From Rippkaea orientalis PCC 8801 (lineage in GTDB: Bacteria > Cyanobacteriota > Cyanobacteriia > Cyanobacteriales > Microcystaceae), in assembly GCF_000021805.1 (NCBI RefSeq), contig NC_011726.1:1-64000 (forward strand): a stretch of DNA of 64,000 bases, given 5' to 3'. The position numbers and the translations under genes were made by a program. Below the pieces are notes generated by a model. The model saw nothing but the letters and a program-made list of their open reading frames with translations. It was not told where the DNA came from and ran no database searches. Numbering within the stretch: position 1 is the first letter of the stretch; the number at the start of each line of letters is the position of its first letter. Below are positions 3,059-27,233 of the stretch, one piece after another.

Positions 3059-4111
3059 ATGAATACTGATAATCATCCCTTGCATATTTTGGTCATTGAA
3101 GATAAAAAATATAGACAAACAATCTCTTTAGAGAAAAAAATCTATTCCCTTGGGAGACATCCCAATAATTCAATTCTTATTTGTGATCAAAAAGCTTCTC
3201 GATATCATGCTACTCTAATGCGTCGTCAAAAAGATTATAATGGTCATTATTCCTATTGGATTGTCGATGGAGATATGCAAGGCAATAAAAGTCTTAATGG
3301 GATCTATGTTAATGGAGAAAAATGTTTAGCAAAAGAACTCAAAAATGGAGACTTAATTAACTTTGGATGTCAAGTTAACGCTACCTATCATGCGCTTACT
3401 GATTGGTCAAATACAATTGTTGATATTGACAAAATAAAATTCGATCCTTTCTCCAAACAATCTCTTGATTTAGAAGCAGCGCATACCCCAACTTTAACAG
3501 CTATGTCGTCAATCCAAAATAATCACATTTCTGGAGGATTTTTGCCTAATCATCTCAATTCTTATCAATCTAATGCGAGTAATACTGAAGAAACTATCTT
3601 GCCAGATAATCGTCACGATCCTTTAACACAATTACCTAATCAGTTTCTGTTTAGTGAGCGTCTATCCTTAACTCTTAAAAATGCTCAACAAAATAATTCT
3701 TTAATGGCTGTTGGTCTATTAACTATTAATCACTTCGATCATATTTATGAAGATTTTGGGTGTCCAATAGCAGAACAATTATTACAAGAAATTGCTCAAA
3801 CATTAAATTCTAGCGTTCGTTATGATGATCTTGTTGCTCGCCTAGGAAAAAATGAGTTTGGCTTTATTTTTTCTAAAATTCGTTACGCCCAAGATCGAGA
3901 AATAATATGTGAAAAACTTCTTAACTCTGTAGCTCAATCTTTTACATTATCAGGCAATCAATTACAATTAAGTGCCAATATAGGCATCGCACTTTACCCC
4001 CACGATGGTCTTAATACAGAAACCCTTTTACAACAAGCAAAAGTAATTTTACTTAATGATTACAAGCAAGATCAAGATGTTCATAAAAATCCTGCTTTTT
4101 TAACTTGTTAA
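3059..4111 (+). CDS. FHA domain protein with degenerate GGDEF domain
   Basis: The N-terminal part (about residues 10-105) is an FHA phosphothreonine-binding domain: SLGRHPNNSI, ASRYHATL and SLNGIYVNG are the conserved blocks. After a low-complexity linker, residues about 185-345 form a GGDEF domain (DPLTQLPNQFLFSERL, then VARLGKNEFGFIFSK). The signature that should read GG(D/E)EF is GKNEF, so synthesis of cyclic di-GMP is unlikely; the domain may bind ligand or partner instead. No membrane segment is seen, so it should be cytoplasmic. It is a single gene followed by a terminator. It would fit a signal integrator downstream of Ser/Thr kinases, which is inference. Confidence 0.85.
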   Translation: MNTDNHPLHILVIEDKKYRQTISLEKKIYSLGRHPNNSILICDQKASRYHATLMRRQKDYNGHYSYWIVDGDMQGNKSLNGIYVNGEKCLAKELKNGDLINFGCQVNATYHALTDWSNTIVDIDKIKFDPFSKQSLDLEAAHTPTLTAMSSIQNNHISGGFLPNHLNSYQSNASNTEETILPDNRHDPLTQLPNQFLFSERLSLTLKNAQQNNSLMAVGLLTINHFDHIYEDFGCPIAEQLLQEIAQTLNSSVRYDDLVARLGKNEFGFIFSKIRYAQDREIICEKLLNSVAQSFTLSGNQLQLSANIGIALYPHDGLNTETLLQQAKVILLNDYKQDQDVHKNPAFLTC

Positions 4112-4215: not shown

Positions 4216-4989
4216 TTAAGTTTGTTGATTTTTTAAGAACGGAATGATCATTGGAACTTGGCGGCGATAGGTTTCGTAATCTTCGCCATGAATTGAAATT
4301 AAATCCCGTTCTTCTAGTTGAATAGCAATTAAAATATAAAGGGTTGTTACAATGGCAAAAACTAAATGAGCAATTGTCATGGTTGGGGTCATCCAAAAGG
4401 CAAAAAACCAGCCAACATAAAGGGGATGACGAACAATTTTGTATAAACCAGGAGTAGAAAATTTCAGAGGTATATAGGTTTCTCCGCGTAAATAGAGGTA
4501 AACTTGTCGCAGTCCAAACAAATCGAAATGATTGATTAAAAAGGTGCTAATTAGGACTAGCAACCAACCAAAACCAAATAGGGATAATAGGATAATCCGT
4601 CCGATAGAATTTTGAAGATTCCAAACAATCCCACCCATCGGTTGCCACTGCCAAAATAATAGGATTAAGGCTAGACTAGAAAATAAGACATAGGTGCTTC
4701 GTTCAATGGGTTGGGGAATAATTTTTGTCCACCAATTTTTAAAACTTTGTCTAGCCATGACACTATGTTGCAGGGCAAAAACCGTTAATAAAGCGAGGTT
4801 AATCATTAACGCTTGTGTTAGGGGGATTTGAGAGGGAGAATCAATGGATTTAGGCACAAGAATATTACCCAGAAAACCAATGGCATAGAGAAAGGTTATA
4901 AAAAAAATGATATAACTGACTAATCCATACAAAAAAGCCGTTATTCTTCCAAGTTTATTGGTTGTTATTGTTGGTTGTGTTTGCGTCAT
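4216..4989 (-). CDS. mddA: MddA-like methanethiol S-methyltransferase (NnrU/ICMT-type membrane protein)
   Basis: This 257-residue protein has about six hydrophobic membrane segments. Its C-terminal signature is that of isoprenylcysteine-methyltransferase-like enzymes: LYKIVRHPLYVGW, then EERDLISIHGEDYETYRRQVPMIIPF. The N-terminal half (LQHSVMARQSFK, then RSTYVL) matches the NnrU/MddA branch, whose studied members methylate methanethiol to dimethyl sulphide with S-adenosylmethionine. Length matches MddA. No sulphur-metabolism gene is adjacent, so the substrate is inferred from family resemblance only. It is read in the same direction as the DUF427 gene upstream but is 78 bases away. Confidence 0.7.
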   Translation of the reverse strand: MTQTQPTITTNKLGRITAFLYGLVSYIIFFITFLYAIGFLGNILVPKSIDSPSQIPLTQALMINLALLTVFALQHSVMARQSFKNWWTKIIPQPIERSTYVLFSSLALILLFWQWQPMGGIVWNLQNSIGRIILLSLFGFGWLLVLISTFLINHFDLFGLRQVYLYLRGETYIPLKFSTPGLYKIVRHPLYVGWFFAFWMTPTMTIAHLVFAIVTTLYILIAIQLEERDLISIHGEDYETYRRQVPMIIPFLKNQQT

Positions 4990-5027
4990 TTATTCCCTCT
5001 TGATGAAATCAATTAAAACAACTGTAG

Positions 5028-5054
5028 GGGCTTAATAATATTAAGCCCTTTTAT
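5028..5054. repeat. Perfect hairpin between mddA-like and DUF427 genes
   Basis: GGGCTTAAT (5028-5036) pairs perfectly with ATTAAGCCC (5040-5048) around a three-base loop. A TTTTATTT tract follows on the plus strand, whereas both flanking genes are on the minus strand, where the hairpin is followed by CTACAG instead. It could still end or stabilise transcripts of the DUF427 gene. Confidence 0.5.
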
Positions 5055-5067
5055 TTATCTAACACCG

Positions 5068-5352
5068 TTAAGGTTCAACTTTGACCCCTCGCCAAAAAGC
5101 AATATATCCTTCTATATTTTTGGCTTTTTCTTTGGTATGGGGGTAGTACCAAGCAGCATCTTTATTTTGCTGTCCATCAACTTCAATGGTATAATAACTT
5201 GCTTCTCCTTTCCAAGAGCAAGTTGTATGGGTGTTACTGTCTTTGAAATATTCTTTATTGATGGAATCAGGGGGAAAGTAGTAATTTCCTTCGACGGTTT
5301 CGCAGTGATCACTTTGAGCTAAAATAGCTCCATTCCAAGTTGCTGTCGGCAT
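5068..5352 (-). CDS. DUF427 domain-containing protein
   Basis: This 94-residue protein is a complete DUF427 domain. It has ATWNGAILAQSD at the start, EGNYYFPPDSI in the middle, CSWKGEASYYTIEVDG as the core and AWYYPHTKEKAKNIEGYIAFWRGV at the end. The family is small, soluble and widespread, and its biochemical role is unknown. The start ATG at 5352 agrees with the family start. No partner gene is evident. Confidence 0.85.
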   Translation of the reverse strand: MPTATWNGAILAQSDHCETVEGNYYFPPDSINKEYFKDSNTHTTCSWKGEASYYTIEVDGQQNKDAAWYYPHTKEKAKNIEGYIAFWRGVKVEP

Positions 5353-5417
5353 ATTATTGAGTGTTGTTAACGCTACAATTTTATATTATCGGATATTTTG
5401 GTCTTTTGGGATAATCA

Positions 5418-6032
5418 ATGGTTATGAAGATAGTTTATTGGGTGATACTCTGTAATGTTTTACTGTTATTAGGGCTGATTCTTTTAATTATCTATGCTAA
5501 ACAGTTTGAACCTTCTATTGCTGGATTATTTATGCCACCAGCAACCCCTCCTTACCCAACGGCTGGATTATTAACTCATACCTTTCAAATTTTTTGTTGT
5601 ATTGCTCCTGTTGTTTGTTTATTTAGTTTTTGTTTATTAAATCACCTGAATCCTCAGAATAAAAACAATAGGTTTATCTTAGGTTCTGCTTTAATAACAG
5701 GAGGATTTGCACTTAATGAAATCTATCGTATTCATATTATATCTCAGTATTTTTATCCTTCAAAATATCTGTTTATTAAAATTTATGCGGTTATTTTATT
5801 ACTTTATATATTAATCTTTTTTAATTATTTTAAGTCCACTCCCTACGGTATAATTATAGTGAGTATCGTCTTGTTAGGGTTTGCGATCGCAGTTGATTCA
5901 CTCCATTTAGGTTTAGGTGTTTTCAGTTCTTTATTAGAAGGCATTCCCAAGCTGTTTAGTGGACTAAATTTAGCCCTTTATTTTTGGCTTGTTTGTTATC
6001 AAGAATTACTCTCGATAATTGAATCAAAATAA
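5418..6032 (+). CDS. Hypothetical membrane protein
   Basis: This 204-residue protein is strongly hydrophobic, with about five or six predicted membrane segments: one at residues 5-25, another around 50-70, and further ones at 80-100, 110-130 and 140-160. I do not recognise a family. There are no charged catalytic motifs. It is transcribed away from the DUF427 gene with 65 bases between the starts, so the two share a promoter region. Two start codons are close (5418 and 5424). Confidence 0.6.
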   Translation: MVMKIVYWVILCNVLLLLGLILLIIYAKQFEPSIAGLFMPPATPPYPTAGLLTHTFQIFCCIAPVVCLFSFCLLNHLNPQNKNNRFILGSALITGGFALNEIYRIHIISQYFYPSKYLFIKIYAVILLLYILIFFNYFKSTPYGIIIVSIVLLGFAIAVDSLHLGLGVFSSLLEGIPKLFSGLNLALYFWLVCYQELLSIIESK

Positions 6033-6048
6033 TTATTATCCACTACAA

Positions 6049-6076
6049 GTAAGAATCAAAGGCTGTTGATTCCTAC
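6049..6076. repeat. 28-bp dispersed palindrome, copy 2
   Basis: GTAAGAATCAA, AGGCT, GTTGATTCCTAC. Relative to the other two copies, the arms differ at paired positions (GAATC/GATTC against GGGTC/GACCC), so the hairpin is conserved while the sequence changes. Confidence 0.7.
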
Positions 6077-6137
6077 CGGAACTTTGCTTAACTATACCAT
6101 TTCTCAGTCTGATATACTTAACACCTAGATGGTTTAC

Positions 6138-6156
6138 GGGTGTGGAAACCACGCCC
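6138..6156. repeat. Small hairpin GGGTGTGG-CCACGCCC
   Basis: GGGTGTGG at 6138-6145 pairs with CCACGCCC at 6149-6156 around an AAA loop, with one G-T wobble. It lies in the gap between the convergent membrane-protein and nuclease genes, together with the 28-bp palindrome, and may help end transcription on either strand. Confidence 0.5.
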
Positions 6157-6208
6157 CTACTTTGTACCTCACGAGCATGGGAATTGTGCATAAACATTTA
6201 CTAATTGT

Positions 6209-7447
6209 TTATTCCTCTAAAGATTCTTGATGTAATTGGTCTACAATTCGCATCAGTCGATTAGCACAAAGTTTAGCTTTTTGTTGGTTATCGCATTCGC
6301 TAACTTCAACATTTTCCAGATAAACTCCCTCATTGAGTAACCAATTATAGTCGGTTGGGGTTTCTTTTTGGAGTCCCGTATCTTTAATCTGGATTGCCAT
6401 CATTATCCCTTGTTTAATAATCAAGAAATCAGGTTCACTGCGCTCTGTTTTTTCACCTTCATCTGCTTTAATTAATACCGGTAAAGGAGCAAAACAGACC
6501 TTAAAGACTTTCAACGCTTCATAAAGAAATATAGTCGGTTGAGATCGAAAAAACAAGCCATCGTGGGCGATTAAATTATCCGCATTGATTAAACTTGGCT
6601 GCGTTGTTTTTTTCCCCGATAACCAACCTTTGGCTTTTTCTTGCCAATTAATCTTGGATTTCTCTTCCGATAACGCCAAAGCAACAATGACCTTATCCAC
6701 TTGTTTGCTTGATGTTCTTAAAAGAGGCTTGATTTTGTCTAGGATTCTCTGTTCTATTTCTTCAATATACTGCTTGACTTGATTATATAAATAACTCGGA
6801 ATGGGTAAATATAAAGTATAAGAACCGTGAGAGCTATCACCCTTGAGAGCAAACGGATCACTAATCTCTTTAATATAGGGTTTAGAATTAGCTAAAATAG
6901 CCACTTCAATCGCTGCTCCTTCTCTGGCAAATAGTCTTGCTAAAGTTCGCAAAATCGGTTCAGAATTTTCCCCTGATAATTGTGAAATATCCTGGTTATC
7001 TAATATATTTTGGAATCCGGTAGGAGCCACTTGTCGATAGGAAAAAATAGGGCGACCAGCCACTTGACTTTGCTCAAATAACTCATACCCTTCAGGAGCC
7101 AATAAAAGATTATATTGTTGTAATAAATATCTTGCTTCTTCTGGATTAGGCCTCACCGTAGGATGAATCGTTTCACACAGAAACCTTAATAATAACCCTT
7201 CATCTCCATTTTGAAAGCCAAAACGTTCGTCATAAAAAATCCAATCATCTTCCCAATCACGACTTAGAAGGCGATGTTTTCTAATATCTTCATCCGCATT
7301 AGGAAAACGGCGATCTGTTGAAGGAATGGTGGTTAGATCGTATAATCTAGTCAGGAAATCCATCTCCCCTAAATAGCCATGCCAAGGGATTTTTTGTTCC
7401 GTAAAAATCTCAAAAATAGTCCGCCTTGTGCTTTCTGATATAGTCAT
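6209..7447 (-). CDS. AbiJ-like N-terminal domain protein with PD-(D/E)XK-type nuclease domain
   Basis: This 412-residue protein starts with a module resembling the AbiJ N-terminal domains of abortive-infection proteins (residues about 5-120: IFEIFTEQKIPWHGYLGEMDF, FYDERFGFQNGDEGLLLRFL, ETIHPTVRP). The C-terminal part (about 298-395) looks like a restriction-type nuclease fold: RSQPTIFLYEAL with E310, SEPDFLII with D340, then AIQIKD with Q353 and K355, giving E-D-Q-x-K. The middle (about 180-260) has no recognised domain. Its start is 22 bases downstream of the clpB stop, so the two genes are probably one transcript. A defence or stress nuclease is inference from domains; no methylase or other defence gene is adjacent. 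Confidence 0.65.
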   Translation of the reverse strand: MTISESTRRTIFEIFTEQKIPWHGYLGEMDFLTRLYDLTTIPSTDRRFPNADEDIRKHRLLSRDWEDDWIFYDERFGFQNGDEGLLLRFLCETIHPTVRPNPEEARYLLQQYNLLLAPEGYELFEQSQVAGRPIFSYRQVAPTGFQNILDNQDISQLSGENSEPILRTLARLFAREGAAIEVAILANSKPYIKEISDPFALKGDSSHGSYTLYLPIPSYLYNQVKQYIEEIEQRILDKIKPLLRTSSKQVDKVIVALALSEEKSKINWQEKAKGWLSGKKTTQPSLINADNLIAHDGLFFRSQPTIFLYEALKVFKVCFAPLPVLIKADEGEKTERSEPDFLIIKQGIMMAIQIKDTGLQKETPTDYNWLLNEGVYLENVEVSECDNQQKAKLCANRLMRIVDQLHQESLEE

Positions 7448-7469
7448 AGTTAATGCGTGTCCTCAATAA

Positions 7470-10136
7470 TTAGGATGAAACAATTTCTGGTTCTACCGTC
7501 AGGATTATTTCTTCTGCTTTTTTCCTAAAAATTAAATGGTTTTCTTGACAATCAATTAAAATTTTATCCCCACTAACAAAGGTATTTTCTAATAATTTAG
7601 TTGCCATCGGGTTTTCCAACTCCCGTTGAATTGCCCGTTTAAGGGGACGTGCCCCGTAGGTTGGATCATACCCTGAGTTTACTAAATAATCCAAGGCAGC
7701 ATCGCTTAATTCCAGATTAATTTTCTGTTCGGCTAATAATTGTTCAATACGCTTAATTTGTAGACTGACGATCTGACGCAATTCGTTCCGTTTCAGGGTA
7801 TGGAAAATAATCAAATCATCAATGCGGTTGAGAAATTCCGGACGAAAATGCTTGCGTAAGGCTTGTAAAACCTGTTGGCGCATTTTTTCATAGTCCGTAT
7901 CATCTCCCGACAAGTTTAAAATATGGTCACTTCCGATATTACTGGTCATGACAATAATCGCATTACGGAAGTCTACGACACGCCCTTGGGAGTCGGTAAT
8001 ACGCCCATCGTCAAGGACTTGTAGGAGGATATTAAATACATCAATATGGGCTTTTTCCACCTCATCCAAGAGTACCACACAATAGGGACGACGACGTACT
8101 GCCTCAGACAGTTGACCCCCTTCCTCATACCCGACGTACCCGGGGGGAGCCCCGACCAAGCGCGAGACGGCGTGTTTTTCCATGTATTCAGACATATCGA
8201 TACGAACCATCGCCTCTTCTGAATCAAAGAGAAAGGCAGCTAACGCCCTAGCTAATTCCGTCTTTCCGACCCCTGTTGGTCCCATAAACAAGAAAGAACC
8301 GATAGGACGCGAAGGATCTTTCATTCCCGCGCGGGCGCGACGAATGGCTGCGGCAACAGCAGCAACAGCTTCACTCTGACCGATAACCCGTTCATGGAGA
8401 TGGCCTTCAAGTTGGAGCAATTTTTGCCGTTCAGTCGCTAACAGACGGTTGAGGGGAATACCCGTCCATCCCGCCACAATTTCGGCGATATCTGACTCGG
8501 TGACTTGTTCACGCAGGAGGGTTTTACCTTGGGACTGAATATCGAGGAGTTCGGTTTCTTTAGCCTCTAATTGCCGTTGGAGGACTTCTAATTTCCCGTA
8601 TTTGAGTTGGGCAGCCTTATTGAGATCGTAGTCCCGTTCTGCCTGTTCCACCTGCTTACGGAGGTGTTCTTCTTCTTCCTTGAGGGCATTGATCTCATCC
8701 AACATCTGCTTTTCGGCCTGCCATTGGGAGTTCAGTTGTTCATGGGTAGTTTCTAGGGCTTTAATTTGCTGTTGAATTGCCTCTAAACGCTCTTTGGAGG
8801 AGCGATCAATGACCAACATTCCCCGTTGTTCTTCGGCTTCTAGGGAGAGTTTCTCCATCTGCAACTGCATCAGACGGCGATCAACGTCTTCGAGTTCGAC
8901 GGGTTTGGAGGTGATCTCCATTTTCAGTTTAGCGGCTGCCTCGTCTACGAGGTCGATCGCTTTGTCGGGTAAAAAGCGATCGCTGATGTAACGATGGGAG
9001 AGGTTAGCCGCCGCAACTAGGGCTGAGTCGGTAATTTTGACCCCGTGGTGCAGTTCGTAGCGTTCTTTGAGTCCCCGTAGGATCGAGATAGTGTCCTCGA
9101 CGGTGGGTTGTTTGACGTAGACCTGCTGAAAACGCCGTTCTAGGGGGGGATCTTTCTCGATGTGCTTGCGGTACTCATCGAGGGTGGTTGCCCCGATACA
9201 GCGCAATTCTCCCCGCGCTAACATGGGTTTGAGGAGGTTTCCGGCATCCATTCCTCCCCCTTCACGGGACCCTGCCCCGACGACGGTGTGGAGTTCGTCG
9301 ATAAACAGGATAATGCGGCCGTCGGAGTGGGTGACTTCGCGCATGACGGTACGAAGTCGTTCTTCAAATTCCCCGCGATATTTGGCTCCGGCGATGAGGC
9401 TACCCATGTCTAGGGAGATTAATTGACGATTTTTCAAAGATTCGGGAACATCGCCGTTGATGATACGTTGTGCCAATCCTTCGGCGATCGCGGTTTTTCC
9501 GACTCCGGGTTCTCCAATGAGGACGGGGTTATTTTTCGACCGACGGGAGAGCACTTGGATGACGCGGCGGATTTCTTCATCTCGTCCGATAACGGGGTCT
9601 AATTTGCCTTCTTTTGCCTGTTCGGTGAGATCTCGCCCATATTTTTCCAGGGCTTCGTAGCGGTCTTCCTGGTTCTGTTCGGTGACTTTTTGCGATCCCC
9701 GAACGGCTTTAATTTCTCGTTCGAGGTCTTGGGGGTCTAGTTGAAAGCTGCGTAAACAACGTCTCCCAATGCGTTCGTCTTCTGCGAACCCCATTAGGAG
9801 ATGTTCGACGGAGATGTATTTGTCTTGCCAACTGGTGCGGGAAGCTTCGGCGCGATCGAGCATTAAATCTAACCCTTGGCCAAGGTAAAGTTGATCAACT
9901 GCCATTAATTTCGATTGACGGTTGGCAAAGGCTTCGATTTGTTGTTGCAAACGGGGAATATCTAGGTTAGCCCTTTCTAAAATCCGTATAGCGAGGCCTT
10001 TTTCTTGTTCTAAGAGGGCTAAGACAACGTGCTCGACTTCTAAGGTCTGATTTTTGAAGCGTCGGGCGATATCTTGAGACTTGACGATGGCATCCCAGGC
10101 TTGTTCTGTAAATTTACTCGAATCAGTTGGCTGCAT
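7470..10136 (-). CDS. clpB: ATP-dependent chaperone ClpB
   Basis: ClpB is a hexameric disaggregase that works with DnaK to rescue aggregated proteins. The 888 residues hold two Clp-N repeats (about 1-150), a first AAA+ module with Walker A GEPGVGKT at 208-215 and Walker B ILFIDELH, the long coiled-coil middle domain between the two ATPase modules (rich in E, Q and L, from about 410 to 530), and a second module with GPTGVGKT and [11 protein letters not shown]. It has no ClpP-binding tripeptide of the ClpA/C type, as expected. Cyanobacteria often have two ClpB proteins; which this is cannot be settled here. No CIRCE-type repeat was seen upstream, though a TATACT at about -50 of the start could be a -10 box. 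Confidence 0.97.
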
Positions 10137-18370: not shown

Positions 18371-19003
18371 TTATTGACTTAGCCATGCGATTGCTTCTCT
18401 AATCCATTCTTCTGAGTTGGTATTTTTGAGCATTTGATTATCTTGACTGAGGGTAGAAATAGCTTTATTAATTTCCTCATTAGTATAGCCTAATGCTAAG
18501 AGCGTCATTTCGACATCTTCTAAGACTTCTAAGGAAGGAATAGCAGACGTTGATGGTAAAGTTATCCCCACTAATTTCCGCCATTGAGATAACTTTGTTT
18601 TTAATTCTAGGGCAATTCTTTCAGCCGTTTTTTGTCCCACTCCGGGGGTTTGAGAAAGAGTGCGAATATTGCCATTAACAATCGCTTGAACTAATTCTTC
18701 TAATCCCAAAGTATCAATTAAGGCGATGGCTAGTTGCGCACCAATTCCACTAACACTAACTAACTGGCGGAATAATTCTCGTTCAGCAGCCGTGGCAAAT
18801 CCATAAAGAATCGGCTGTTCATCTTTAACCTGTAAATGGGTAAAAACTTGAAGAGTTTCTCTTGGATTTTGAGATAATTCTCGGGCAAATCTGGACGGAA
18901 TTTGCATTTCATAACCCACTTGATTGACTTCTAAAATTAAGAGAATCCGGTTCTGGGTATTTTTAAGAGTTTCGATAGGGTTTCCTTTAAGATAACTAAT
19001 CAC
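18371..19003 (-). CDS. ruvA: Holliday junction branch migration protein RuvA
   Basis: RuvA tetramers bind Holliday junctions and recruit the RuvB motor. The 210 residues follow the family: OB-fold domain I (MISYLKGNPIE, then QPILYGFATAAERELFRQL), domain II with two helix-hairpin-helix motifs (VSGIGAQLAIALI and TPGVGQKTAERIALELK), and a C-terminal RuvB-contacting domain III (LEDVEMTLLALGYTNEEI). There is no ruvB or ruvC beside it, as is usual in cyanobacteria. Confidence 0.95.
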   Translation of the reverse strand: MISYLKGNPIETLKNTQNRILLILEVNQVGYEMQIPSRFARELSQNPRETLQVFTHLQVKDEQPILYGFATAAERELFRQLVSVSGIGAQLAIALIDTLGLEELVQAIVNGNIRTLSQTPGVGQKTAERIALELKTKLSQWRKLVGITLPSTSAIPSLEVLEDVEMTLLALGYTNEEINKAISTLSQDNQMLKNTNSEEWIREAIAWLSQ

Positions 19004-19300
19004 AATTTATCAGTTATTAAAACAATCCAAAATGGGTTAATAGCAATTTTTTAGACAAGTTAGCGATATCGATTACTATCAACTATTATATATTCTACCT
19101 CCTTACATAAAATGCTTAGGGTACTGTTTTTATAAATAAGTGTTTTTACGGTTGACATTCACTATTTTTTGTGATAAAAGATGGCTTTAAATTAATATAA
19201 TAAAATATACCAAAAAATCTCTAAAAATTACTTAAATTTTAAATTACTATAAAGATAGTTTCTAAATGAACACAATTTAACTATTCATCAACTAAGGCAG

Positions 19301-21307
19301 ATGTGGAACATTATTAGACAATTGTTTTTTCCTAACAGCTATATTCCCCATGGACATTGTTATCTATGGCAAACTCCTTTAGTTTGGCTTCATTTAGTCT
19401 CTGATGCTTTAATTACCTTAGCTTATTATTCTATTCCACTGATTTTACTGTATTTTGTTCGGAAAAGAGAAGATATACCTTTTAGAGATATTTTTATTTT
19501 ATTTAGTGCTTTTATTCTCTCTTGTGGAACCACCCATATTATGAATATATGGACGCTGTGGAATCCTGCTTATTGGCTATCTGGAGGAATTAAGGCGTTT
19601 ACTGCTTTTATTTCTATCTTCACAGCAATACAACTCTTTACCCTCATTCCTAAAGCGTTATCTTTACCTTCTCCTTCACAATTAGAAGCCCTCAATCATC
19701 AATTACAAAATCAAATCAAAGAAAGAGAAGCGGCTGAACAAATTGTTCGTCAACTCAATGAAGAATTAGAGCATAGAGTACAACAAAGAACAACGGAACT
19801 GAAAACCGCTAACCAAAAGCTACAAAAAGAAATTTTAGAGCGTCAACAAGTAGAACTAGCGTTACGAGAAAGTCAACGATTTACAAAACGTATTGCTGAT
19901 TTAACTCCCAATCTCTTATATGTTTATGATATAGTTGATCAAAAAAATATTTATTGTAATCGTTTTATTAAAGACCTTTTAGGATATACTCCAGAAGAAA
20001 TTCAACAGAAAAATATTGATATTATTGTTTCCCTTATTCATCCCGATGATCAACAAAAACTGAATCGATGTCGAACCCGTTTATTCAATCTCAGAGATGA
20101 AGATTACCTCCAGATAGAAGGCCGATTAAAAGATAGTGAAGACAACTGGCATTGGATACAGATACGAAAAACAATTTTTGAACGAACAATAGATGGAGAA
20201 CCTAAACAAATTCTGAGTGTTGCATCAGATATTACCCCAAGTAAAGAAGCAGAAATCACCTTACAACAGGTTAATCTTCAATTAGCTGAAAGAGTACAAG
20301 AATTAGAAATTCGTACCCAAGAACTGATTTGTTTAGGAGAAATAACTGATTTATTACAAGCTTGTTTATCGGTATCAGAAGCAGAAAAAATTCTTGCCGA
20401 TTTAGTCAAACCCTTATTTCCTAATTACTCTGGTGCAATATTCACTATCAAAGATTTATCTGATACTTTTGAATTAGTTGCCCATTGGGGTAACTCCCTC
20501 AATACAGCTAAGTCCCTACTGGCTAGTCAATGTTGGGGATTAAGACGAGGAAATACCCATGGAAATAATCCTGATTTTCCGGGGTTGTACTGTCAACATA
20601 TTTACGTTAATGAAGGGATAGGAAGAACCCTATGTATTCCCATGATTGCCCACGGAGAAACCTTAGGATTACTCTACTTAAATTTATCGAATGTTGAATT
20701 ATTTAATCCGTCTCAACAACACTTAGCCGAAGCAGTATCCAAGCAAATTGCCATTGCTTTTGCTAATTTAAAATTACGAGAAACCCTTGAGGAACAAAGT
20801 TTACGAGATCCCTTAACAGGTTTATTTAATCGTCGTTATCTAGAAATATCTATCAATCGTGAATTAAATACGATTATACAGGATCAAGACTACAGTTTAG
20901 GGCTAATCATGCTAGATATTGACCACTTTAAACAATTCAACGATAATTTTGGTCATGAAGCTGGAGACTTAGTATTACAAACGGTAGCCAATTGTCTGCA
21001 AAATCATATTCGACAATCGGACATTGCTTGTCGTTTTGGAGGAGAAGAATTTATGATTATTTTACCGAGAGCTTCCTTAAATAAAACCCTAGAACGCGCT
21101 GAAAAAATTCGTGAGAGTATTAAACAACTAAAGATAGAATATAAATCTCAGCCATTAGATTCTATTACAGCTTCCTTTGGAGTAGCAGCATTTCCTCAAA
21201 ATGGAACCACCCTTCATGAACTTTTTATTGATGCAGATAAAGCCTTATATCAAGCCAAAAAACAAGGGCGCGATCGCGTGGTTTGTGCTTTTTCTCCTAA
21301 TACTTAA
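19301..21307 (+). CDS. Diguanylate cyclase with ethylene-receptor-like membrane domain, PAS and GAF
   Basis: The 668-residue protein begins with a three-helix membrane domain resembling the plant ethylene receptor: LVSDALITLAYYSIPLILLYFV with D35, and FILSCGTTHIMNIW with C75 and H79. The spacing D-40-C-4-H equals that of ETR1 D25, C65, H69, the copper-holding residues. A coiled coil (about 130-195) leads to a PAS domain (about 200-320), a GAF domain (about 350-500) and GGDEF (510-665). The active signature is RFGGEEF and an RxxD product-inhibition site (RQSD) lies five residues before it. It should make cyclic di-GMP; ethylene sensing is inference. A TTGACA lies at 19152 without a clear partner box. 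Confidence 0.9.
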   Translation: MWNIIRQLFFPNSYIPHGHCYLWQTPLVWLHLVSDALITLAYYSIPLILLYFVRKREDIPFRDIFILFSAFILSCGTTHIMNIWTLWNPAYWLSGGIKAFTAFISIFTAIQLFTLIPKALSLPSPSQLEALNHQLQNQIKEREAAEQIVRQLNEELEHRVQQRTTELKTANQKLQKEILERQQVELALRESQRFTKRIADLTPNLLYVYDIVDQKNIYCNRFIKDLLGYTPEEIQQKNIDIIVSLIHPDDQQKLNRCRTRLFNLRDEDYLQIEGRLKDSEDNWHWIQIRKTIFERTIDGEPKQILSVASDITPSKEAEITLQQVNLQLAERVQELEIRTQELICLGEITDLLQACLSVSEAEKILADLVKPLFPNYSGAIFTIKDLSDTFELVAHWGNSLNTAKSLLASQCWGLRRGNTHGNNPDFPGLYCQHIYVNEGIGRTLCIPMIAHGETLGLLYLNLSNVELFNPSQQHLAEAVSKQIAIAFANLKLRETLEEQSLRDPLTGLFNRRYLEISINRELNTIIQDQDYSLGLIMLDIDHFKQFNDNFGHEAGDLVLQTVANCLQNHIRQSDIACRFGGEEFMIILPRASLNKTLERAEKIRESIKQLKIEYKSQPLDSITASFGVAAFPQNGTTLHELFIDADKALYQAKKQGRDRVVCAFSPNT

Positions 21308-26492: not shown

Positions 26493-27233
26493 ATGACGCT
26501 AGACAATCAATGTAAATGCCATCAATCTTTAAAATTTTCTATTAGGATGGCCTTTCAGCCGATCATCGATGTTCAAGATAAGGTAATTTTCTCCTATGAA
26601 GCACTGGTAAGAGGAGAAGAAGGACAAGAAGCTAACTATGTTTTATCTAAAGTAACGAACGATAACAAATATAGTTTCGATCAACAGTGTCGAATTACCG
26701 CCATAGAAGCTATTGCCAAGCTTAATCGTTCAGCGACTGTTAATATTAATTTTTTGCCCAATGCTATCTATGAACCAGAAACTTGTTTAGCGCGGGTACT
26801 AGAGGTAGCAAAAACCGTGAGTTTTCCCCATGATCAAATTATCTTTGAAGTCACTGAACACGAAAAAATCACGAATCATTCCCTATTAAAAAACATATTC
26901 ACAACTTATCGTCGTATGGGTTTTCGTACAGCAATCGATGATTTTGGCGAAGGTTTTGCGGGTTTGAATCTGCTAGCTGATTTTCAACCTGATTTCTTAA
27001 AATTAGATATGAAATTGATCCAAGGCATTAGTCAAAACTCTGTCAAACAGGCGATTTTATCGGGTATTCAAATTACGTCAGAAAAATTGGGTATTAAACT
27101 TATTGCTGAAGGAATTGAAACCCGTGATGATTATTTGTTTTTGATGGATAACGGTATTCGTTATATGCAGGGATATTACTTTGCTAAACCTGCCTTAGAA
27201 ATGCTTCCAGAGATAGCAGAATACATCCTATAA
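26493..27233 (+). CDS. EAL domain cyclic-di-GMP phosphodiesterase
   Basis: The protein is almost only an EAL domain (246 residues). The signature is YEALVRG with E36, followed by NINFLP, IIFEVTEHE, AIDDFGEGFAGL, DFLKLDMKLI, LIAEGIET and QGYYFAKP. All metal-binding and catalytic residues expected in active enzymes (E, N, E, DD, K, E, Q) appear present, so it should hydrolyse cyclic di-GMP to pGpG. The form DDFGEGFAGL is that of the BLUF-associated and stand-alone branch. There is no sensor domain, so its control is likely by expression or partner. It is divergent from the clpC-like gene. Confidence 0.9.
   Translation: MTLDNQCKCHQSLKFSIRMAFQPIIDVQDKVIFSYEALVRGEEGQEANYVLSKVTNDNKYSFDQQCRITAIEAIAKLNRSATVNINFLPNAIYEPETCLARVLEVAKTVSFPHDQIIFEVTEHEKITNHSLLKNIFTTYRRMGFRTAIDDFGEGFAGLNLLADFQPDFLKLDMKLIQGISQNSVKQAILSGIQITSEKLGIKLIAEGIETRDDYLFLMDNGIRYMQGYYFAKPALEMLPEIAEYIL

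What the first reader, a model, noticed from the sequence alone, without database searches (positions are those of the whole stretch)
19301..21307. Ethylene-receptor-like diguanylate cyclase
The membrane domain has D35, C75, H79 at the spacing found in the plant receptor ETR1 (D25, C65, H69). The output is GGEEF with an intact RxxD inhibition site, not a histidine kinase. It would link ethylene or a related gas to cyclic di-GMP. The known cyanobacterial ethylene receptor works through a kinase-type protein; this fusion would be a different route.
Basis: partly seen in the sequence, partly recalled or inferred. Interest (0 to 1): 0.7.

Follow-up and report, generated by a model that had tools for sequence, protein, structure and literature searches.

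The report
Ethylene-receptor domain fused to c-di-GMP enzyme
A cyanobacterial gene joins the gas-binding membrane part of the plant ethylene receptor directly to an enzyme that makes the bacterial signal molecule cyclic di-GMP, which suggests a short and testable route from ethylene to bacterial behaviour.

Summary
Window 19301-21307 (+) encodes 668 aa: an ETR1-type ethylene-binding domain (Pfam ETR1_N, E=5e-42), PAS, GAF and a GGDEF domain (E=9.5e-52) with RQSD inhibition site and GGEEF. All seven residues needed for ethylene binding in ETR1 are present. The sensor is common: 148 of 195 genomes sampled from the order, 89 of 386 from the phylum, mostly on histidine kinases (174 of 204 fetched ORFs); fusion to GGDEF is a minority form, 15 of 204. 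Five full-length relatives of the same architecture were found in the family; three further copies are interrupted or decayed. The genome has c-di-GMP receptors and a second, partly degenerate ethylene-domain kinase beside a REC-PAS-GGDEF gene. Most likely: a one-component receptor in which Cu(I)-bound ethylene resets a helical linker and alters cyclase activity. Ethylene binding and cyclase control are inferred, not shown. Eight searches of the held papers showed no description of such a fusion, but the main surveys were not readable. New variant of a known kind.

The parts
19301..21307 (+). whole gene: ETR1_N - helix - PAS - helix - GAF - GGDEF protein, 668 aa
19379..19666 (+). ethylene-binding domain (ETR1_N, aa 27-122); predicted helices aa 25-55, 62-84, 89-113; D35 Y42 I45 P46 I72 C75 H79
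19673..19876 (+). long predicted helix (aa 125-192), probable signalling helix between membrane domain and PAS
   Evidence: model of mean pLDDT 71; residues 181-204 under 50
19949..20221 (+). PAS_3 domain (aa 217-307)
20393..20767 (+). GAF domain (about aa 365-489) with C411 W412 G417 C431 H433, invariant in eight aligned relatives and present in two paralogues without the ethylene domain
20801..21277 (+). GGDEF diguanylate cyclase domain (aa 501-659)
21011..21052 (+). RQSD inhibition site (aa 571-574) and GGEEF active site (aa 580-584)
18371..19003 (-). ruvA, neighbour of the gene in four other genomes of the family; not part of the signalling system
   Evidence: name by my reading of the sequence

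Best explanation
A one-component, dimeric membrane receptor for ethylene whose output is c-di-GMP. Two copies of the three-helix membrane domain hold Cu(I) through C75 and H79, with D35, Y42, I45, P46 and I72 shaping the site; ethylene binding shifts the helices, the shift travels along the long helix (aa 125-192) and through PAS and GAF, and changes how the two GGDEF domains face each other, so that c-di-GMP synthesis changes. The RxxD site caps the product level. I commit, with little weight, to ethylene LOWERING cyclase activity, because ethylene reduced transcripts downstream of SynEtr1 and reduced c-di-GMP in Azospirillum. SHOWN here: domains, intact residues, relatives, c-di-GMP receptor domains in the genome. 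INFERRED: copper and ethylene binding, dimerisation, coupling, sign of the effect, and PAS and GAF as further inputs.
For: Domain matches far above cut-off. All seven binding residues present; 186 of 199 distinct fetched cyanobacterial domains keep all seven; the domain of SynEtr1 expressed in yeast binds ethylene (PMC6682694 abstract). Intact catalytic and I-site motifs. Five relatives in the family keep the order sensor-PAS-GAF-GGDEF at 49-60% identity. The genome has 23 GGDEF, 12 EAL, 6 PilZ and 2 ComFB matches, so the product can be used. Two paralogues that lack the ethylene domain match the soluble part at 44% (GAF-GGDEF stretch) and 33% (most of PAS-GAF-GGDEF), as expected if the membrane domain was put on a working cyclase chassis. 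Ethylene lowered c-di-GMP in Azospirillum (PMC11819568 passages).
Against: No binding, copper or enzyme data for this protein. PAS and GAF could be the dominant sensors. The relative L119 keeps the fusion but has lost two of the seven residues (I45T, I72T), and copies in three relatives are interrupted or decayed, so the function is dispensable in places. The membrane part of the model is of low confidence (43-65 mean pLDDT per ten residues over aa 1-130, pTM 0.41). The sign is borrowed from kinase-type receptors.
Confidence: 0.6

Rival explanations
1. The membrane domain is an anchor or binds copper only, and the real regulator of the cyclase is the GAF (or PAS) domain, for instance through its conserved cysteines and histidine.
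For: GAF residues C411, W412, G417, C431 and H433 are invariant in the eight-sequence alignment and present in two paralogues whose match begins after the PAS domain (L216, L232), so this GAF works in cyclases without the ethylene domain. L119 has a weakened ethylene site but intact cyclase motifs.
Against: If the membrane part were only an anchor, keeping the whole seven-residue site in 14 of 15 GGDEF-bearing proteins would be unexpected (13 of the 14 rows; the fifteenth, L125, shows all seven in the alignment).
Confidence: 0.22
2. A receptor of the ethylene-receptor class tuned to something other than ethylene (another alkene, carbon monoxide, copper status or redox state) that controls c-di-GMP.
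For: A Cu(I) site could bind other pi-ligands (general chemistry, not tested here); whether the organism meets or makes ethylene was not searched.
Against: The site is identical, at the positions known to matter, to those of domains with measured ethylene binding.
Confidence: 0.12
3. A gene in decline: still open in this strain, but no longer of selective value.
For: Interrupted or decayed copies in G129, G211 and G228 and no match in four small same-genus genomes.
Against: The window copy keeps every catalytic and binding residue tested, and full-length copies persist in G202, G205, G206, G213 and L093 (the G200 contig by length) at 49-60% identity, though with GGEEL in L115 and no RxxD in L093.
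Confidence: 0.06

Closest known systems
SynEtr1 / UirS / Slr1212 of Synechocystis PCC 6803
   Same: N-terminal cyanobacterial ethylene-binding domain, soluble sensor module behind it
   Different: SynEtr1 has a cyanobacteriochrome and a histidine kinase acting through response regulators (PMC6682694 introduction); this protein has PAS, another kind of GAF, and a GGDEF output without phosphotransfer
GeiEtr1 and GeiEtr2 of Geitlerinema PCC 7105
   Same: all seven binding residues; GeiEtr2 has PAS and GAF behind the ethylene domain and a gene with a diguanylate cyclase domain grouped with it (PMC6682694 section 11; in L058 a REC-GGDEF gene lies next door)
   Different: outputs are kinases; the cyclase is a separate gene
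AzoEtr1 of Azospirillum brasilense
   Same: bacterial ethylene receptor; ethylene reduced c-di-GMP (PMC11819568 passages)
   Different: PAS-histidine kinase; the pathway from receptor to responses is stated there to be unknown
Plant ETR1
   Same: membrane domain with the seven residues
   Different: kinase-type cytosolic part (recalled); no cyclase
Other sensor-regulated c-di-GMP enzymes (bacteriophytochrome cyclase 5llx, DosP, DosC, MASE-type cyclases)
   Same: sensor domain coupled to GGDEF; c-di-GMP enzymes are the nearest solved folds by Foldseek
   Different: phytochrome, haem or other membrane sensors (roles recalled), not an ethylene-receptor domain

Membership tests
ETR1-type ethylene-binding domain (PF25487) | profile match over the curated cut-off | tested here: met
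   142.5 bits against 27, aa 27-122
ETR1-type ethylene-binding domain (PF25487) | seven residues required for ethylene binding in ETR1 | tested here: met
   D35 Y42 I45 P46 I72 C75 H79 (ETR1 numbers recalled)
ETR1-type ethylene-binding domain (PF25487) | three transmembrane helices | tested here: inconclusive
   three helices predicted at 25-55, 62-84, 89-113 with low confidence; 19-residue Kyte-Doolittle windows over 1.6 start only at 32-36 and 97-102
ETR1-type ethylene receptor | saturable, copper-dependent ethylene binding | not testable with these tools
   needs a binding assay
ETR1-type ethylene receptor | histidine-kinase-type transmitter | tested here: not met
   no HisKA or HATPase match at E up to 0.001; GGDEF instead. 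It is filed as a protein with that sensor domain, not as a kinase-type receptor
GGDEF diguanylate cyclase (PF00990) | profile match, GG(D/E)EF and metal-binding aspartates | tested here: met
   175.4 bits against 23.8; GGEEF and DIDHFK..ND..GHEAGD
GGDEF diguanylate cyclase (PF00990) | RxxD product-inhibition site five residues upstream | tested here: met
   RQSD at 571
GGDEF diguanylate cyclase (PF00990) | c-di-GMP synthesis from GTP | not testable with these tools
   needs an enzyme assay

The most novel reading that the evidence does not exclude
A phosphotransfer-free ethylene receptor: a hydrocarbon gas bound to Cu(I) in the membrane directly gates c-di-GMP synthesis in one polypeptide, and cyanobacteria have wired the ethylene sensor to c-di-GMP more than once, by fusion to GGDEF or GGDEF-EAL and by pairing ethylene-domain kinases with neighbouring REC-GGDEF regulators.
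Probability: 0.45. Interest if true: 0.65.

Novelty: new variant of a known kind. Interest (0 to 1): 0.42.

Why it matters
The bacterial ethylene receptors described in the papers I could read (SynEtr1, GeiEtr1 and 2, AzoEtr1) are kinases; Azospirillum shows an ethylene effect on c-di-GMP with no known link (PMC11819568 passages). A fused receptor-cyclase would make that link testable with one protein, and would add ethylene to the stimuli of c-di-GMP: a 2022 review whose abstract announces a comprehensive census of those stimuli does not contain the word ethylene (PMC8846402, abstract, word search of the main text). It could also serve as a simple genetically encoded ethylene sensor.

Tried and rejected
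Architecture unique to this genome: rejected (15 of 204 fetched ORFs carry GGDEF; same order in five relatives). Ethylene-domain kinases specifically accompanied by GGDEF genes: in the named loci 9 of the 15 GGDEF genes found within 9 kb lie within 1.5 kb (binomial p=0.0014), and 7 of 74 non-GGDEF ethylene-domain ORFs have one that near; but against other kinases in the same loci the difference is not significant (5 of 58 against 1 of 24, both with full 1.5-kb flanks, Fisher p=0.67), so specificity is not claimed. Number of origins of the fusion: the first tree count (11 changes, at least 4 forced) mislabelled one row (L014 is a cut copy of the gene in L125) and counted unclassified rows as kinases; corrected: 10 changes on the best tree, at least 2 forced by starred branches, 13 rows unclassified; too few columns to say more. 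The five same-family rows as one clade are not rejected (p-AU 0.248). PDB sequence search with the membrane domain: no match at E up to 1. Promoter scan: 11 sites against 10.3 expected by chance; no terminator-like site. PADLOC matches (LeoBC, AbiZ, E about 1e-5 to 1e-3, mostly over the long helix) were disregarded. Plasmid search with the membrane domain: 19 records, of Azospirillum, Novosphingobium, Rhizobium, Deinococcus and others as well as cyanobacteria; where a feature was annotated under the match it was a PAS, ATP-binding or kinase name, but 13 of 19 rows had no annotation there, so GGDEF fusions outside cyanobacteria were not tested. Papers not held: PMC1785413, PMC4972284, PMC7261785, so the older surveys of bacterial ethylene domains, known to me only by citation, could not be checked.

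Full report
OBSERVATION. The ORF at 19301-21307 (+) is 668 aa, starts with ATG and is bounded upstream by an in-frame stop at 19256. Pfam finds ETR1_N at aa 27-122 (E=5e-42), PAS_3 at 217-307, GAF (PF01590 over cut-off, best stretch 422-486; GAF_2 slightly under its cut-off, 365-487) and GGDEF at 501-659 (E=9.5e-52). GGEEF, RQSD and the DIDHFK..ND..GHEAGD motif are intact. The finding is real and not chance.

HOW COMMON. The sensor domain is widespread in cyanobacteria: at least one match in 148 of 195 genomes sampled from the order, 23 of 50 in the family and 89 of 386 sampled from the phylum; 0 of 14 control genomes. I examined 212 loci: the own genome's, 30 among the best-scoring of the order, the 80 named ones nearest to the window's domain out of 578 relatives, the family, and a part of the listed phylum matches (100 stretches). 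211 of the 212 loci gave a domain-bearing ORF, 212 ORFs in all, 204 distinct. Home-made profiles assign GGDEF to 15, kinase to 174 and neither to 15 of the 204; 8 of these last 15 run off the fetched stretch. By group: 3 of 30 in the order set, 6 of 80 named, 5 of 21 in the family set, 0 of 70 in the phylum set, and the window. So the fusion is a minority form, found in this family and scattered elsewhere; one scattered case is GGDEF-EAL (L036). The sampling is biased to high-scoring domains, and some genes occur in more than one set (for example L014 and L125 are the same gene, and L002 and L113).

RELATIVES. All 15 GGDEF-bearing proteins keep the DxDxFK..ND motif; the GG(D/E)EF box is GGEEL in L115 and GGEEM in L125; 14 of 15 keep RxxD, L093 does not. 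L119 lacks two of the seven ethylene residues. Of ten stretches from relatives, ruvA lies beside the gene in four (L224, L225, L126, L129), and L126 also has the pfkB-like and rsmI neighbours; it was not found in the 16-17-kb stretches L226 and L227, where the gene sits elsewhere. In G129 (L126) the gene has lost its middle and the two remaining parts lie in different frames; in G211 (L129) the match is full length but the ORF ends after GAF; in G228, same genus and 87% complete, only two fragments were found, one with a stop. A tree of 199 domains needs 10 changes between kinase and GGDEF outputs, at least 2 forced by starred branches; it cannot tell gains from losses.

THE GENOME. The genome has one other ethylene-domain protein, a PAS-rich HisKA_2 kinase that keeps D, Y, C and H but has V, A and L for I45, P46 and I72. 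A REC-PAS-GGDEF gene follows it on the same strand after 218 bases (L223 4900-8187 and 3293-4681). So both ethylene-type sensors of the genome sit on, or beside, a diguanylate cyclase; a control shows that such neighbours are not clearly specific to ethylene-domain kinases. The genome has 23 GGDEF, 12 EAL, 6 PilZ and 2 ComFB matches; that the cyanobacterial c-di-GMP receptor CdgR belongs to the ComFB family is recalled. The nearest paralogues of the soluble part lack the ethylene domain.

MECHANISM. A model from eight sequences (mean pLDDT 71, pTM 0.41) has three helices in the membrane domain, a helix from 125 to 192, PAS, a helix 312-354, GAF, a helix 470-500 and the cyclase; Foldseek's best matches are c-di-GMP enzymes such as DosP and a bacteriophytochrome cyclase, with low overall TM-scores, so only the domain folds are meaningful. 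The anatomy fits sensor-driven repacking of a helical stalk between two GGDEF domains (general knowledge of such cyclases; not tested here). Ethylene in the membrane domain would be the input, PAS and GAF possible co-inputs. Sign: in Synechocystis ethylene lowers transcripts downstream of the receptor (PMC6682694 introduction) and in Azospirillum it lowers c-di-GMP (PMC11819568 passages), though in Synechocystis it raises biofilm formation (PMC6682694 passages); I lean to inhibition, with little weight.

KNOWN OR NEW. Eight searches of the paper library (the last two listed 20 of 27 and 20 of 45 papers, one search listed 27 of 28) gave listings in which I saw no paper on an ethylene-domain/GGDEF fusion. 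I saw sections 3 and 11 and passages of PMC6682694, passages of PMC11819568, PMC4686702, PMC5812497, PMC12288463, PMC13075795 and PMC7063779, and word searches of PMC8846402 and PMC1183210 (no occurrence of ethylene in either; also none in PMC13075795 and PMC7063779). The nearest printed statement is that a gene with a diguanylate cyclase domain is grouped with GeiEtr2 (PMC6682694). The main surveys of bacterial ethylene domains were not readable here, so an earlier mention is possible. Both halves are known; the combination is a variant.

VERDICT. Observation confirmed; interpretation plausible and partly supported; ethylene control of c-di-GMP remains an inference. Interest moderate.

Noticed in passing
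L223:3293-4681 and 4900-8187 (G000:C3 about 430.8-435.7 kb): Second ethylene-domain gene of the genome: a PAS-rich HisKA_2 kinase whose domain lacks three of the seven residues, followed on the same strand by a REC-PAS-GGDEF gene.
   Followed up: partly
G169, G182, G229, G230 (same genus, 2.5-3.1 Mb, one contig each): No match to any part of the protein at E up to 0.001, so neither an ethylene domain nor a GGDEF relative was found; c-di-GMP synthesis may be lost in these reduced genomes. They may be diatom spheroid-body endosymbionts, by recall of genome sizes only.
   Followed up: no
window 20531-20599, also L216 and L232: GAF with C411, W412, G417, C431 and H433 invariant in eight relatives (CWxLRRG in most, CWGLNSG in L093) and present in GAF-GGDEF paralogues without the ethylene domain; ligand unknown.
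   Followed up: partly
window 26493-27233: EAL-domain gene of 246 aa about 5 kb downstream; EAL match over cut-off.
   Followed up: no
window 3059-4111: Protein with an FHA-like start (by eye) and a GGDEF match over cut-off whose active-site box reads GKNEF.
   Followed up: no
G000:C3:3852134-3870441: Pairs of PilZ matches with identical scores in two very long open frames (2665 and 2398 aa) about 14.6 kb apart, a likely duplication.
   Followed up: no
whole window: Contig of 4,679,413 bases in a genome of 4,787,694 bases in 4 contigs fits, by recall only, Rippkaea orientalis (Cyanothece) PCC 8801; not verified.
   Followed up: no
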